Assembly (NCBI GenBank): GCA_016841265.1
Contig: JAENZL010000002.1
Span: forward strand, 71,009-135,008
Direction of reading: 5' to 3'
Origin: Methanobacteriota archaeon
Lineage (GTDB): Archaea > Halobacteriota > Methanosarcinia > Methanosarcinales > Methanosarcinaceae
DNA length: 64,000 bases
Numbering within the stretch: the stretch's first letter is position 1; each line of letters begins with the position of its first letter. Below the pieces are notes generated by a model. It had not been told where the DNA came from. It saw nothing but the letters and a program-made list of their open reading frames with translations, and made no database searches. Positions 2,950 through 48,520 of this stretch are shown in pieces. The position numbers and the translations under genes are program-made.

Positions 2950-3034
2950 GCGAGGGTTGCCCAGCCAGGTCAAAGGCGCTAGGTTGAGGGCCTAGTCTTG
3001 TAGGAGTTCGTGGGTTCGAATCCCATCCCTCGCA
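2950..3034 (+). tRNA. tRNA-Leu (anticodon GAG), first copy
   Basis: An 85-nucleotide class II tRNA. The acceptor stem is GCGAGGG paired with CCCTCGC (3027-3033), with discriminator A at 3034. The anticodon stem CTAGG/CCTAG encloses the loop TTGAGGG, so the anticodon is GAG (leucine, CUY codons). A long variable arm and a T-loop GGTTCGAATCC follow. The next bases are CCA, so this copy happens to encode its 3' end. In archaea a tRNA-Leu usually stands between rpoD and rpl18e, so this is probably the original copy. Confidence 0.95.
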
Positions 3035-3145: not shown

Positions 3146-3230
3146 GCGAGGGTTGCCCAGCCAGGTCAAAGGCGCTAGGTTGAGGGCCTAGTCTTGTAGG
3201 AGTTCGTGGGTTCGAATCCCATCCCTCGCA
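3146..3230 (+). tRNA. tRNA-Leu (anticodon GAG), second copy
   Basis: Identical over all 85 bases to the copy 196 bases upstream, but the bases after the discriminator are CTA, so CCA is not encoded. The similarity extends beyond the gene: a GCGCAAA-ATCGAA-type stretch precedes both copies and AAACTTTCTTTGAAGTGTT follows both. This shows a recent tandem duplication of roughly 196 bp and not an independent isoacceptor. Confidence 0.95.
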
Positions 3231-43468: not shown

Positions 43469-43790
43469 CAGCCTGCTCGAGAAGTTCTTTCATTTAACCC
43501 CACAAACCTTTTTTCATTCCGGGCGATACAGGAGTTTTCCGCCAGCCTGCTTGAGAAGCACTTCCGTTGACCCCTCAAACCGTTTTTCAGTTCTGATAAC
43601 ATGGAGGTTACCCGTCATTCTTCTTGAGAAGCACTTCCATTGATCCTGTATACCGTTTTTTAGTTCTGATAATATGGGGATTACCCGTCAGTCTGCATGA
43701 GACAGTAGTTCCATTGATCCTGTAAACCGTTTTTATGTCCTGGATATGTAGGAATTCCCGCCAGCTTGCCTGGCGGCGCCTCCCCAAAAA
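43469..43790. repeat. 73-bp tandem repeat, about four and a half copies
   Basis: Degenerate units recur every 73-74 bases, marked by ttgagaagcacttcc-type segments at about 43476, 43551, 43624 and 43697, each followed by TTGAtCC and aCCGTTTTT. The last unit ends in the hairpin CCGCCAG-cttgc-CTGGCGG (43758-43776), a relative of the CAAG-loop family. No coding frame runs through them. Confidence 0.75.
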
Positions 43791-43889
43791 GAAATAAAAA
43801 AGAGATATGAAGAATTGAGCAATTTTCAAATTGGATTTCTTCCTGTTTTATTTACAACCTACCGTTTTTAAATTATTCAATTATACTTT

Positions 43890-44035
43890 TTCAGTCATCC
43901 TTATGTACTTTTCAGTCATTTAGATGTACTTTTCAGTCATTTAGATGTACTTTTCAGTCATTCTGATGTACTTTTCAGTCATTCAGATGCACTTTTCAGT
44001 CATTCAGATGCACTTTTGTGGTTATTCCAATGTAC
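43890..44035. repeat. 21-bp tandem repeat, about six copies
   Basis: The unit gtacttttcagtcatttagat is repeated with single changes (TTT/TCT/TCA before GAT; GTAC/GCAC). There are no spacers. It stops four bases before the next hairpin element. Confidence 0.85.
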
Positions 44036-44068: not shown

Positions 44069-44369
44069 TGAGAGCGCCGGTACTTGAAAAGCAAATTGAA
44101 AAATGTTTCTCTTTTTTCTTTTCTCAAAAGCATCAATGACGGAACGTAGGGCGACCGATTCACTGTTTCCGGAATATTTTCCATTCGTCTCCTTCAGCTC
44201 CTCTAATTTTCAAATATGATGGCCGGAATAGTTTTCATCATCAGTTACCAGTGGTCTCGGAATTCTGAAACGTCTTAGCCTCTGGTCACACTAAAATTAT
44301 ATCATTTGTTTCGTACATACTGAGGGTAGAAAATGAGGTGATTGTACGACCCAGGAAAGGAATAGATTT

Positions 44370-45044
44370 GTGCTGGCGGTGGGTATCCTGCTTCTTTCGA
44401 GCACTGTTGCCGTCAATCTTCTGCTTGAAGATTCTCCGGTGGTGATCCAGCTTGAAGGAGACACGTTCAAGGTTGTGGATATCCCGTATGTGTATACTGT
44501 AAAAGAAGCGTATATTCTCCTTTTTTCCGGGTTTTTGGGGGGTATGGCGCTGGCCAGGATTCTGCATTATCCGGGTTTTTTCGGGCCAGTTTCTCCTTTT
44601 CCGGGGCCTGCAGGGCAGGGAACGGCAGTCAATCTTGCAGCAGAGGCAGTCCCAATGGGGAATTTTGAAGTTTCCCCTGATAATTCTCCTGAAAATTTCC
44701 GTGAGAATTCTCCTGAAAATGGGAATTCCCCTGATAATTCTCCCGAAAATTCCCCTGAGGAACTCCGGCATGCTTTGGATAAAGTTGACCCTACAGACGT
44801 TCTTTTACGGGCCCTTGAAGGAGACGAAAGGAAAGCCGTTGAACTTATTGTGCAAAGAGGGGGAAGGATTCTCCAGAATGAACTGGTCAATTCCCTTGAT
44901 TTTTCCAAGGCCAAAGTTTCCCGCGTACTCATGAACCTGGAACGGAGGGGCATAATAGACAAGAAAAAATACGGGCTTACCAACTGCATTTCGCTAGCTG
45001 ATGAACTTAAAGCCGGTGCGGGGACGAAGGGGGAGTTGAAATGA
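44370..45044 (+). CDS. Membrane-anchored winged-helix regulator
   Basis: A 224-residue protein with two N-terminal hydrophobic segments (LAVGILLLSSTVAVNLLL and AYILLFSGFLGGMALARIL) enclosing about 30 probably external residues. A repetitive linker of SPENFRENSPENGNSPDNSPEN type follows, then a C-terminal winged helix of the MarR/IclR-like type (ALEGDERKAVELIVQRGGRILQNELVNSL to KVSRVLMNLERRGIIDKKKYG). This layout suggests a regulator that senses something outside and acts on DNA. The start is GTG at 44370. Its stop overlaps the next ATG by four bases (ATGA). Confidence 0.8.
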   Translation: MLAVGILLLSSTVAVNLLLEDSPVVIQLEGDTFKVVDIPYVYTVKEAYILLFSGFLGGMALARILHYPGFFGPVSPFPGPAGQGTAVNLAAEAVPMGNFEVSPDNSPENFRENSPENGNSPDNSPENSPEELRHALDKVDPTDVLLRALEGDERKAVELIVQRGGRILQNELVNSLDFSKAKVSRVLMNLERRGIIDKKKYGLTNCISLADELKAGAGTKGELK

Positions 45045-45910
45045 AGAAAGATTTTCTAATTACGCTTTCGTTTGCCATCCTTATACTGGCATTGGGATTT
45101 TTCTGGTATTACGGAACCGGGGCTGATGTGCATATCGCGGATATGACTGCTCCTCCTGTTGGAGTCGGCAGCCGGGGACAGCTGGACATTGTGCTTCTGA
45201 ACAACGGCTCAGAACCTGTGGACGTGTGGCTCGAGGTAGAAAATGCTTTTGTGGATGAGAACGGGGAGAGCTATTCGACCTCAAGGCTGATCATTTCCAA
45301 TGAATCGGAGTCTCTGTGGAATGCCGAGCTTGTCTCACTTCAGAAGCCTGTTAAACTTCTCCCCGGAAATAATTCGGTCAGTGTAATGCTCGGCTATCAG
45401 CTTCCGGGGGAATATGAAGTCGAGGTTAAGGTTTCTGAGGATTCCAGGCTGCTAGATAAGGCCGCGCTGGTCGTGGAGGTCCCTCCTCCTGAACTCCTTC
45501 TGAAACTGGAGTATGAAAAGGAGCGCATGGAGACATCTGATGTTTACGGGATATACGGCTACCTTATCAACCACGGGCTAAGCTCCGCGCGGGATGTGTC
45601 CACAAACCTGACCGTGATAAACGAACGTACCGGGAAGACGGTCTTCACCTCTTCCAGGACTTACGATGTGAGAGGAAATGATAAGAGTGCCCTGTGGACC
45701 TGGCCGGACTATCCCTATGCAATTGTGGAAATCGCCCATGAGGGACCCTCCGGAGAATCATACATGCCTGTCCAGAATGTTGTAATCGGAGGAAGTGAGG
45801 ACCGCTTCAGGATTAATGTAACTTCCACGTGGCAGGACCAGGTAGTTTCTGCCGAATTGCTGCTTCCTTCGGAAGAGGAGGCAGGTGATGCGTATGATAA
45901 AGCGATATGA
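45041..45910 (+). CDS. Membrane-anchored extracellular beta-sandwich protein
   Basis: A 289-residue protein with one N-terminal signal anchor (FLITLSFAILILALGFFWYY) and no lipobox. The rest looks like two immunoglobulin- or CARDB-like domains: VGSRGQLDIVLLNNGSEPVDVWLEV, GYQLPGEYEVEVKVSEDS and YLINHGLSSARDVSTNLTV are typical strand patterns. It should sit on the outer face of the membrane. The gene starts inside the stop of the regulator gene and its end overlaps the HEAT lipoprotein gene by 23 bases, so the three are translated together. Confidence 0.75.
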   Translation: MKKDFLITLSFAILILALGFFWYYGTGADVHIADMTAPPVGVGSRGQLDIVLLNNGSEPVDVWLEVENAFVDENGESYSTSRLIISNESESLWNAELVSLQKPVKLLPGNNSVSVMLGYQLPGEYEVEVKVSEDSRLLDKAALVVEVPPPELLLKLEYEKERMETSDVYGIYGYLINHGLSSARDVSTNLTVINERTGKTVFTSSRTYDVRGNDKSALWTWPDYPYAIVEIAHEGPSGESYMPVQNVVIGGSEDRFRINVTSTWQDQVVSAELLLPSEEEAGDAYDKAI

Positions 45911-47360
45911 ACTTCTCAGCTGCGGGCATGCAAAACTTTTGCTTCTCTTGATTTTGCTTGCAGGAACCTGTGCCGGCTGCCTTGGCCAGGACCCTCTTGA
46001 GGCCAGAGTGGAGAAACTGGTCCGGGGTATTGGGGATGAGGACCCGAGTATCAGTTGTGCCTCAGTTGACGGGCTTGTCGATATTGGGGAACCCGCAGTG
46101 GATTCACTAATTAAGGCATTAAAAGACGAGGATCCCCAGGTGCGAAGCCTTGCTGCTCATGCTCTCGGGCAAATGAAGACTCAAAGAGCTGCGGACCCTC
46201 TTCTGGGGATTCTCGACGATCCTTCTCCGGAGGTCCGAATGAATGCATCTTATTCACTTGGTTTGATTGCAGACACGAAAGCCGTTGAGCCTCTGATCGG
46301 GCTCCTGGAGGATGAAGACGAAAAGGTGGTTCTCTATACTGTGGTTGCGCTTGGGCGACTGGGTGATCCCAGGGCTGTCGAACCTCTTGCCGAAATTCTG
46401 GATAGTGATAATGACGATGTACGTCGTGAAGCTATGCATTCCCTTGAAGGAATCGGAGATCCGAGGATTGTTGATCCTTTTCTGGACCTGTTAGCTGATG
46501 AAAAGCTTGGAACTTCGGCAGCCTACACCCTTAGCCGCTTTGAAAGTGAACAGGTTTTTGAAAAGCTCACTGCGCTGCTGGACAGCAGGAACCCCACAAC
46601 CCGAACCAACGCCGTAATCGCACTTGGGAATCTCCGGGACCCTGCAGCTGTCCCCTTCCTGCTTGAAATGCTGGATGACAGGACTCCCGAGGTAAGAAGG
46701 GAAGCTGCTTTTTACCTGGGCCTTCTTGAGCCTGAAGAAGCCGCCCCGGCAGAACAGCCCCTGATAAATGCCCTTGAGGACAGTGAAACCGAAGTACAGG
46801 AAGCTGCTGCTCGCTCTCTTGGAGGGATCGGAAGCAAGGAAGCAGTACCTCCCCTTGAAGAACTCCTTCAGGATAAGAACCAGAACCTTCAGGTTGCTGC
46901 CGTTAAAGCCCTGGGTGAAATTGGAGGTCCCGAGGCTTTTGACTCCCTTATTCCCCTTCTTGAAGACGAGGACTGGTTTGTAAGAGAGAAAGTTGTGGGT
47001 TCCCTGGTAGAAATCGGAGACCTCAGGGCGGTTGATCCTCTGATTTCTCTGCTTGGGGATGAAAGCTATAGGGTCAGGCGAAGTGCTGCTAAGGGCCTTG
47101 GAAAACTCGGGGACGAAAGAGCCGTTGACCCCCTTCTCAAGGCGCTCGAAACCGAAAGGGAAAGGGATGTCCGGGCGGCGGAAGTCCGGGCTCTTGGGGA
47201 CCTTGGAGGGCCTGAAGCTGCCGAAGGCCTGCGCCGGATCAGTACGGACATGGATGAATATCGGAGCGTCAGGACTGTCGCGGAAGAAATACTCGGAAAA
47301 TTCGAGGACGGTGGGGAGGCGAATGCCTCTTCTTCTTCTTTTTCTTCTTCCTCTTCTTAA
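45888..47360 (+). CDS. HEAT-repeat lipoprotein
   Basis: A 490-residue secreted protein. The N-terminus has a signal with lipobox (LLLLILLAGTCAGCLGQ), so the protein is probably lipid-anchored at about Cys31. The body is a run of about thirteen HEAT/PBS-lyase repeats of 31 residues (DEDPQVRSLAAHALGQMKTQRAADPLL pattern), a protein-binding solenoid. The tail is a serine run (SSSSFSSSSS) coded by TCTTC repeats. The ATG at 45888 has AGGAGG six bases before it; other ATG/GTG starts nearby fit less well. Confidence 0.85.
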   Translation: MRMIKRYELLSCGHAKLLLLLILLAGTCAGCLGQDPLEARVEKLVRGIGDEDPSISCASVDGLVDIGEPAVDSLIKALKDEDPQVRSLAAHALGQMKTQRAADPLLGILDDPSPEVRMNASYSLGLIADTKAVEPLIGLLEDEDEKVVLYTVVALGRLGDPRAVEPLAEILDSDNDDVRREAMHSLEGIGDPRIVDPFLDLLADEKLGTSAAYTLSRFESEQVFEKLTALLDSRNPTTRTNAVIALGNLRDPAAVPFLLEMLDDRTPEVRREAAFYLGLLEPEEAAPAEQPLINALEDSETEVQEAAARSLGGIGSKEAVPPLEELLQDKNQNLQVAAVKALGEIGGPEAFDSLIPLLEDEDWFVREKVVGSLVEIGDLRAVDPLISLLGDESYRVRRSAAKGLGKLGDERAVDPLLKALETERERDVRAAEVRALGDLGGPEAAEGLRRISTDMDEYRSVRTVAEEILGKFEDGGEANASSSSFSSSSS

Positions 47361-47662: not shown

Positions 47663-48520
47663 ATGAAGAAATATACAATAGTTTCATTGGCTGCTCTTAC
47701 TTTCTTAATTGCAATTGCAGCAGGCACTGTAAGTGCAGCAGACACTTTAAGTGCAGCAGATACTGTTAGCAGTAGAGTCAACGTTTGTAATGTTGTGGGC
47801 ATCAATTATGAATGCGGGAGCTGGTCTAATGAACAATATCCGGTAATCGATTTATTTGGTGATGAATATGTTCCGCTGCTCGCCAACCACGATGATATCC
47901 GGGAAGCACACGTTAACAAGCTTGCCGGATTGGTTCTTGACAGTAATGAAACATACACCCTCGAAAAAGGCGAAAAAATTGATCTTGGCCGTGGCTACGC
48001 TCTCGAAGTTAGGCAGATTACTGATAATATTGATGGTGGGAAGGTCTGGCTCGAATTCACCAGGGACGGACAACATGTTGCCGACCAGAATATCTCAGTT
48101 GATTACCAGAATATCTCAGTTGATTCCGAGAACAACAAGACCTGGACTGTTGTCCTTGACAATGTTCAGGGCGAAAACGATATTGTTGTCATGAAAGTCC
48201 ATGTCAGGCAGTTATTCGTGGGTACGGAAAAAAGCATCGTTTGGATCAACGGTATCTGGCTTATTGACTATGCAAATGCCAGAACCCTCAATATCGGGGA
48301 TGAATTCGGAGAGTTTACACTTGAGGAAATCATCAGCGGAGTAGATGAATCTAACCCGGGAAGTCTTGTTTTCAAAAATGTTTCCGTTGCTGATTTCTCT
48401 TCATCCGGCACTCCCGGAAAGGAACCGGGTAAGTCCGCTGACAAAAGTACAGGACCGCTCACTTCATGGTGCCGGGACCTGTGGACCTGTATCACAATGA
48501 AAAGCAAATCAACGTTTTAA
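47663..48520 (+). CDS. S-layer-related protein with one DUF1608-type domain
   Basis: A 285-residue exported protein. The signal peptide is MKKYTIVSLAALTFLIAIAA with cleavage near SAA. The domain has the features of the Methanosarcina S-layer duplication domain: YVPLLANHDDIREAHVNKLAGLVLDSNETYTL (in parts), GYALEVRQI, KVWLEFTRDG and WINGIWLIDYANARTLNIGDEFGEF. Full S-layer proteins carry two such domains and a C-terminal anchor; this one has one domain and no membrane helix. Two in-frame duplications are visible (SAADT at the start, QNISVD near residue 142). Confidence 0.82.
   Translation: MKKYTIVSLAALTFLIAIAAGTVSAADTLSAADTVSSRVNVCNVVGINYECGSWSNEQYPVIDLFGDEYVPLLANHDDIREAHVNKLAGLVLDSNETYTLEKGEKIDLGRGYALEVRQITDNIDGGKVWLEFTRDGQHVADQNISVDYQNISVDSENNKTWTVVLDNVQGENDIVVMKVHVRQLFVGTEKSIVWINGIWLIDYANARTLNIGDEFGEFTLEEIISGVDESNPGSLVFKNVSVADFSSSGTPGKEPGKSADKSTGPLTSWCRDLWTCITMKSKSTF

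What the first reader, a model, noticed from the sequence alone, without database searches (positions are those of the whole stretch)
44370..47360. Overlapping three-gene operon: membrane winged-helix regulator, external beta protein, HEAT lipoprotein
The genes overlap (ATGA; 23 bases), so they are translated as a unit. The first protein could carry an outside signal directly to DNA, and the other two are outside proteins, one lipid-anchored with a HEAT solenoid, which is unusual for an extracellular protein. The set looks like a sensory or cell-surface system that I cannot match to a described one.
Basis: partly seen in the sequence, partly recalled or inferred. Interest (0 to 1): 0.7.

Follow-up and report, generated by a model that had tools for sequence, protein, structure and literature searches.

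The report
Archaeal membrane switch with surface partner
In methane-producing and methane-eating archaea, a membrane-anchored DNA-binding protein is almost always encoded next to a protein anchored on the outside of the cell, and the pair probably controls its own genes through one conserved DNA site, a minimal way to carry an outside signal to DNA.

Summary
The trio exists as described, but its core is a pair. P1 (TM, beta-hairpin, TM, disordered linker, C-terminal DUF7343 winged helix) and P2 (N-terminal TM anchor plus two beta-sandwiches) are adjacent for 71 of 74 P2 matches in 237 genomes of the class; the three exceptions are at contig ends or fragments. The HEAT lipoprotein is an add-on of Methanosarcinaceae, not seen in Methanoperedens. 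An S-layer-type gene follows in 20 of 23 Methanosarcina-clade loci.

New here: a 24-bp element with imperfect dyad symmetry lies upstream of P1 in 36 of 36 loci from two families, 47-48 bp from a TATA-proximal block. In Methanoperedens the same element heads the longer operon containing the pair. It is nearly unique per genome and absent, at 0-1 mismatch, from 11 genomes lacking the pair. This predicts autoregulation by P1.

Distant hairpin-type relatives usually sit beside other anchored partners (22 of 31; background about 10%). So this looks like an archaeal counterpart of bacterial co-component regulators (ToxR/ToxS, VtrA/VtrC), with a different DNA-binding domain and layout. P1 seems to start at a conserved ACG (21 of 23), 24 nt before the apparent GTG. 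Ligand, sign of regulation and physical contact are unproven.

The parts
44252..44275 (+). Candidate operator TGGTCTCGGAATTCTGAAACGTCT (imperfect dyad; general form GTYTCR-N6-TGARAC)
   Evidence: Conserved in 36 of 36 upstream regions scanned, leave-clade-out test 12 of 12, Methanoperedens operon heads, near-unique per genome
44293..44302 (+). TATA box AAAATTATAT; the conserved block TAWCANYYGTTTC begins at 44300, 48 bp after the operator start
   Evidence: Block found in 35 of 36 loci; sequence read
44335..44341 (+). Shine-Dalgarno GAGGTGA, 4 nt before the proposed ACG start
   Evidence: GAGGTG in 22 of 23 Methanosarcina-clade loci, GAGTTG in one
44346..45044 (+). P1: membrane winged-helix regulator; proposed ACG start (apparent GTG start at 44370); TM1, beta-hairpin outside, TM2, disordered linker, C-terminal wHTH (DUF7343)
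45041..45910 (+). P2: N-terminal TM anchor and two extracytoplasmic beta-sandwich domains; partner and presumed sensor
   Evidence: adjacent to P1 for 71 of 74 matches
45888..47360 (+). HEAT-repeat lipoprotein, accessory third gene (possible starts 45885, 45888, 45894)
47663..48520 (+). S-layer-domain (PF07752) protein gene, neighbour; not shown to belong to the operon
   Evidence: colinear in 20 of 23 Methanosarcina-clade loci

Best explanation
P1 and P2 form a two-protein transmembrane regulator of the co-component type. P2 is tethered by one N-terminal helix and exposes two beta-sandwich domains between membrane and S-layer; it senses the state of the envelope or a ligand there. It passes the signal to the short, highly conserved beta-hairpin between the two membrane helices of P1, changing the dimer state or position of the cytoplasmic winged helix at the end of a flexible linker. 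P1 binds the dyad element 44252-44275 just upstream of the TATA box of its own operon and so sets the level of P1, P2 and, in Methanosarcinaceae, the HEAT lipoprotein, which probably works with P2 as an envelope scaffold or client. Shown by sequence: gene pairing, predicted topology, conserved loop, conserved near-unique element and its rigid spacing. Inferred: P1-P2 contact, that P1 is what binds the element, the sensed signal. Unknown: activation or repression.
For: P1-P2 adjacent on one strand for 71 of 74 P2 matches in 237 genomes of the class. Extracytoplasmic hairpin residues invariant in 17 of 17 rows (P23, I26, Q27, F33, P39, Y40, Y42, T43), as conserved as the wHTH. AF2: P2 anchor helix plus two beta domains; P1 two long helices around a hairpin, disordered linker, wHTH (low confidence). 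Element upstream of P1 in 36 of 36 loci; profile from the Methanosarcina clade beats all 200 shuffles in 12 of 12 other loci; 47-48 bp spacing to the TATA block in 35 of 36; heads the operon in 11 of 15 Methanoperedens loci, directly before P1 in one. At 0-1 mismatch: 8 of 11 genomes with the pair, 0 of 11 without. Distant hairpin wHTH proteins have an immediately upstream anchored partner in 22 of 31 loci against 52 of 501 genes. One Methanoperedens-family genome fuses P2 to DUF4367, the domain of the operon's usual first gene.
Against: No experiment, transcript or complex model. P1 model confidence is low (mean pLDDT 61.4, pTM 0.31). The 31 distant loci include 9 that fail the partner test, at least 6 with no nearby anchored partner. 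Three distinct Methanoperedens loci lack a strict element match. P2 could be a structural surface protein, not a sensor. The element is only an imperfect dyad (7 of 11 complementary pairs in the window copy).
Confidence: 0.58

Rival explanations
1. P1 is a self-sufficient one-component regulator and P2 is merely a co-transcribed surface protein, with no signalling contact.
For: Co-transcription alone gives linkage. The same genome has DUF7343 regulators with a fused sensor-like N-terminal region (L235, L236).
Against: Those relatives carry a large extracytoplasmic region, P1 only a hairpin of about 27 residues; the pair is kept in 71 of 74 matches while the third gene comes and goes; distant hairpin types also sit next to anchored partners.
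Confidence: 0.17
2. P2, the HEAT lipoprotein and the S-layer-type protein are a surface-assembly or quality-control apparatus; P1 is only its dosage regulator.
For: S-layer-type gene colinear downstream in 20 of 23 Methanosarcina-clade loci; HEAT gene in 23 of 23 of these; HEAT protein enlarged to 1690-1754 aa in some Methanolobus loci.
Against: Outside Methanosarcinaceae the pair exists without the HEAT gene; no operator-like site before the S-layer-type gene.
Confidence: 0.15
3. The conserved element is bound by another, global regulator and not by P1.
For: Nothing computed shows which protein binds it; conserved archaeal promoter elements can bind other factors.
Against: Essentially one high-quality site per genome, none at 0-1 mismatch in 11 genomes lacking the pair, and the element follows the P1 operon to a different first gene in Methanoperedens.
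Confidence: 0.1

Closest known systems
Bacterial co-component systems ToxR/ToxS and VtrA/VtrC (PMC9214523, passages seen)
   Same: Overlapping two-gene cassette; membrane-tethered wHTH transcription factor; partner with one membrane anchor and an extracytoplasmic beta-rich domain; rapid divergence of the partner.
   Different: Here the wHTH is C-terminal and DUF7343/MarR-like, P1 has two TM helices and only a hairpin outside, and P2 is predicted as two beta-sandwiches rather than a lipocalin-like barrel. The word archaea has 0 occurrences in that paper's main text.
ArnR/ArnR1 of Sulfolobus (PMC6396743, passages seen)
   Same: Archaeal membrane-bound HTH regulators with two TM domains; described targets are inverted-repeat boxes in a promoter.
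   Different: ArnR has HTH first, then HAMP and sensor domains, TMs last, and is called a one-component system; P1 has TMs first, wHTH last, and a dedicated neighbour.
Transmembrane transcription regulators, TTRs (PMC10269533, abstract, part of results and passages seen)
   Same: P1 meets the working definition: a DNA-binding domain plus at least one TM region.
   Different: That survey counts 1,384 archaeal TTRs; the text seen does not describe paired archaeal partners. Its table marks possible TcpH/ToxS-like neighbour genes for some listed TTRs and gives 'Na' as associated protein for ArnR.
DUF7343 one-component proteins of the same genome (L235, L236)
   Same: C-terminal winged helix of the same family behind a TM and a long linker; found by P1 sequence search.
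   Different: They carry a large N-terminal exported region in the same chain instead of a hairpin and a separate partner.

Membership tests
Transmembrane transcription regulator (TTR) | DNA-binding domain plus at least one TM helix | tested here: met
   DUF7343 wHTH; two long N-terminal hydrophobic helices in the AF2 model
Co-component system (ToxR/ToxS, VtrA/VtrC) | Membrane-tethered TF and single-anchor extracytoplasmic partner in overlapping or adjacent genes | tested here: met
   ATGA overlap; adjacent for 71 of 74 matches; P2 model
Co-component system (ToxR/ToxS, VtrA/VtrC) | N-terminal OmpR-type winged helix (Trans_reg_C; family name recalled) followed by one TM and an alpha/beta extracytoplasmic domain | tested here: not met
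   wHTH is C-terminal, DUF7343 best and MarR-like next, no Trans_reg_C among the 6 families listed; two TMs and only a hairpin outside
Co-component system (ToxR/ToxS, VtrA/VtrC) | Lipocalin-like fold of the partner | tested here: inconclusive
   AF2 gives two beta-sandwich domains; structural matches are GH2, transglutaminase and complement Ig-like domains; unlisted folds are not excluded
Co-component system (ToxR/ToxS, VtrA/VtrC) | Physical heterodimer of TF and partner | not testable with these tools
   No complex prediction or experiment available
ArnR/ArnR1 | N-terminal HTH, HAMP, sensor domain, two C-terminal TMs | tested here: not met
   Order reversed; no HAMP among Pfam matches of P1
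DUF7343 (PF24034) | Profile match above the gathering score | tested here: met
   70 bits against a cut-off of 27.6
HEAT-repeat protein | HEAT_2 / HEAT_PBS repeats | tested here: met
   393.8 and 209.1 bits
Archaeal lipoprotein | Signal peptide with lipobox Cys | tested here: inconclusive
   Hydrophobic leader and Cys at the same place in 22 of 23 Methanosarcina-clade rows read as C/S-A-G-C or similar, less canonical in Methanolobus; no lipidation evidence

The most novel reading that the evidence does not exclude
Methanosarcinales and relatives hold a whole class of archaeal co-component regulators that arose separately from ToxR/ToxS: a TM-beta-hairpin-TM winged-helix core that docks onto interchangeable, separately encoded extracytoplasmic sensors (downstream P2 type, or other partners upstream), each autoregulated; and in Methanosarcina the regulator is translated from a conserved ACG start codon that keeps its level low.
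Probability: 0.35. Interest if true: 0.78.

Novelty: new variant of a known kind. Interest (0 to 1): 0.6.

Why it matters
How archaea pass information from outside the membrane to DNA without kinases is poorly known; the described cases seen here are one-component proteins such as ArnR. A compact two-gene cassette with a single predicted operator can be tested directly in genetically tractable Methanosarcina (M. acetivorans, M. mazei, M. barkeri; tractability recalled). If confirmed it would give archaea a co-component signalling type, link it to the cell surface next to S-layer-type genes, and offer a conserved natural ACG start codon to test.

Tried and rejected
The 21-bp tandem array at 43888-44017 as operator: rejected; found only in the window's own genome among the 162 loci held at the time, and again at another place of that genome. 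The element upstream of the S-layer-type gene: no match found; hits near +3500 in L171, L176 and L177 (score 14.0) fall inside S-layer-type coding sequence. Regulon search: the short pattern GAATTCTGARACGTYT at up to 2 mismatches occurs at control level; the 24-bp pattern gives extra sites only at 3 mismatches, at about the level of the reversed control, one of them (G020) in a coding gene, plus one in G162 that looks like a truncated tandem-duplication remnant between two ack copies. In genomes without the pair, two sites at 2-3 mismatches (G119, G121) lie inside a histidine-kinase-like gene and one in G123 and one in G005 stand apart from any P1/P2 homologue. PDB fold matches of P2 (WxLIP, RbmA, transglutaminase, GH2 linker domains) are generic Ig-like folds and not used for function; no sequence relative in the PDB for P1 or P2 beyond two weak matches to designed Ig proteins. 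The codon-position test for the ACG start was not decisive: variable columns 4, 4, 4 by codon position; pairwise codon differences 79 synonymous, 141 non-synonymous, the latter mostly at codon 2; the case rests on Shine-Dalgarno spacing, the aligned ATG of relatives and the positively charged N-terminus. Papers: no description found with searches.

Full report
What is there. The window comes from a Methanosarcina-like archaeon; the locus follows pta-ack and an ATP-grasp gene. The three ORFs are real and overlap as reported. P1 has a DUF7343 winged helix at its C-terminus, the third protein is made of HEAT repeats, and P2 matches no Pfam family; its only NCBIfam match is at E 0.098.

The core is a pair. 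Protein P2 was searched in 60 relatives (18 with a match), then with a profile in all 237 genomes of the class: 69 have it. The N-terminal TM-hairpin-TM part of P1 was searched in the same 237: 71 have it at E 0.01. Comparing coordinates, 71 of 74 P2 matches have P1 immediately upstream on the same strand; the three others are contig-end or fragment cases (G092, G071, G097). Of 77 P1 matches 70 are paired; of the seven others two are at contig ends and five are weak (E 9e-9 or worse). One genome (G157) counts twice among the P2 matches because its P2 is broken in two pieces. In named genomes the pair was seen in 24 of 24 loci returned: Methanosarcina, Methanolobus, ANME-2 and Methanoperedens; these overlap with the unnamed set and are not added to it.

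The third gene is an add-on. Among 38 loci examined, the HEAT gene follows P2 in 30, is absent in 5 with at least 8 kb of sequence left, and cannot be judged in 3 near a contig end. In the Methanosarcina clade (genera g1 and g8) it is present in 23 of 23, and a colinear S-layer-type gene follows it in 20 of 23. The locus of G156 has an S-layer-type protein of 475 aa and that of G160 proteins of 518 and 617 aa; Table 1 of PMC3361143 (passages seen) lists MA3598 with 475, Mbar_A1815 with 617 and Mbar_A1816 with 505, so these are probably the same genes, an inference from size. In some Methanolobus loci the HEAT protein is 1690 or 1754 aa long. In Methanoperedens the pair instead follows a DUF4367 protein and a WD40-like protein, and in one genome (G042, L065) P2 is fused to a DUF4367 domain.

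Structure. P2: helix 2-24, then two beta domains (30-147 and 152-275), mean pLDDT 83.4. Structural neighbours are generic Ig-like domains. P1: helix 2-27, beta-hairpin 32-45, helix 52-73, disordered 79-145, winged helix 149-225, mean pLDDT 61.4. The hairpin segment carries as many invariant residues as the winged helix (17 rows). Topology with N-terminus and wHTH inside and hairpin outside follows from the positive-inside rule (recalled), given the ERxR/K residues before TM1.

The promoter. Alignments of P1 upstream regions within clades show a conserved block before the TATA box. The best match to a 24-bp consensus was 19-24 of 24 in all 36 regions examined (23 of the Methanosarcina clade, 13 of other Methanosarcinaceae and family f2; a selection of the loci held), 98-127 nt before the profile match. 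Since the consensus came from these sequences, a profile was rebuilt from 17 distinct Methanosarcina-clade sites and applied to 12 other loci: each best site beat all 200 dinucleotide shuffles of its own region and lay at -98 to -116. The distance from element start to the TATA-proximal block TAWCANYYGTTTC is 47-48 bp in 35 of 36 loci (L054 missed by the expression). In Methanoperedens 11 of 15 loci (10 of 13 distinct by my count, L066/L090 and L063/L087 being pairs) have a strict match TGGTTKCA-N6-TGMAAC; in all but L086 it stands before the DUF4367-type gene that opens the operon, and in L086 directly before P1; spacing is again 47-48 bp except in L066/L090. Genome-wide, in 11 genomes with the pair the 24-bp pattern at up to 3 mismatches finds the P1 promoter in 9; 8 of these have it with 0-1 mismatch; G031 and the Methanoperedens genome G084 carry diverged forms that the pattern misses. 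In 11 genomes without the pair no site with 0-1 mismatch exists; the 2-3 mismatch sites inspected are in coding sequence or not next to any homologue. The element therefore travels with the pair. Autoregulation by P1 is the simplest reading but is an inference.

Start codon. In 21 of 23 Methanosarcina-clade loci the codon 24 nt before the apparent GTG/ATG start is ACG, in two it is ATG (L053, L183); a GAGGTG (22) or GAGTTG (1) Shine-Dalgarno lies 5 nt before it in all 23. In outgroups a normal ATG or TTG stands at about the same place. Starting at ACG adds a positively charged octapeptide before TM1. In L187 the downstream codon is ATA, so only the ACG is left near the Shine-Dalgarno, but P2 is broken in that genome. 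The codon-position test was not decisive.

A wider class. More distant hairpin-type winged-helix proteins were found in the phylum and, with an extended profile, in 82 of 237 class genomes including the typical ones. Of 31 distant loci looked at (20 regions, 10, one), 22 have an immediately upstream (60 bp or less) same-strand gene for a protein of at least 120 aa with one N-terminal hydrophobic helix; among 501 genes of the loci used as background 52 do (10 per cent, the hits themselves included). These partners gave no match to the P2 profile (12 loci tested) and no Pfam family in the four tested. Hence the same membrane core seems to be combined with different outside partners.

Verdict. 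The finding is a real, conserved, apparently undescribed archaeal regulatory cassette that works like, but is not a member of, the ToxR/ToxS and VtrA/VtrC co-component family. New variant of a known kind (membrane-bound transcription regulators).

Noticed in passing
44346-44348: Conserved ACG as probable start codon of P1 (21 of 23 Methanosarcina-clade loci); annotation by common starts would cut 8 residues.
   Followed up: partly
44333-44341: ATGAGGTGA: a two-codon mini-ORF overlapping the Shine-Dalgarno of P1; AATGAGG is nearly constant in the clade. Possibly only the Shine-Dalgarno itself.
   Followed up: no
43888-44017: 21-bp tandem array, 6.2 copies, present only in this genome among the loci held; a second array of the unit at G000:C51:20652-20752.
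   Followed up: partly
43539-43734: 73-bp tandem repeat, 2.7 copies, between the ATP-grasp gene and the operon.
   Followed up: no
L084:2871-5833: Two tandem P1-P2 pairs in a Methanoperedens genome.
   Followed up: no
L065:8924-10291: P2 fused to a DUF4367 domain; DUF4367 is otherwise in the first gene of the Methanoperedens operon.
   Followed up: yes
L080, L189, L076: HEAT protein enlarged to 1690-1754 aa in Methanolobus loci.
   Followed up: no
L187: P2 split into two frames in G157 although P1, the HEAT gene and the S-layer-type gene remain.
   Followed up: no
2950-3034 and 3146-3230: Two neighbouring tRNA genes with equal Rfam score, probably a duplication.
   Followed up: no
L235, L236: Two further DUF7343-type membrane regulators of the same genome, each with a large fused exported region.
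   Followed up: partly
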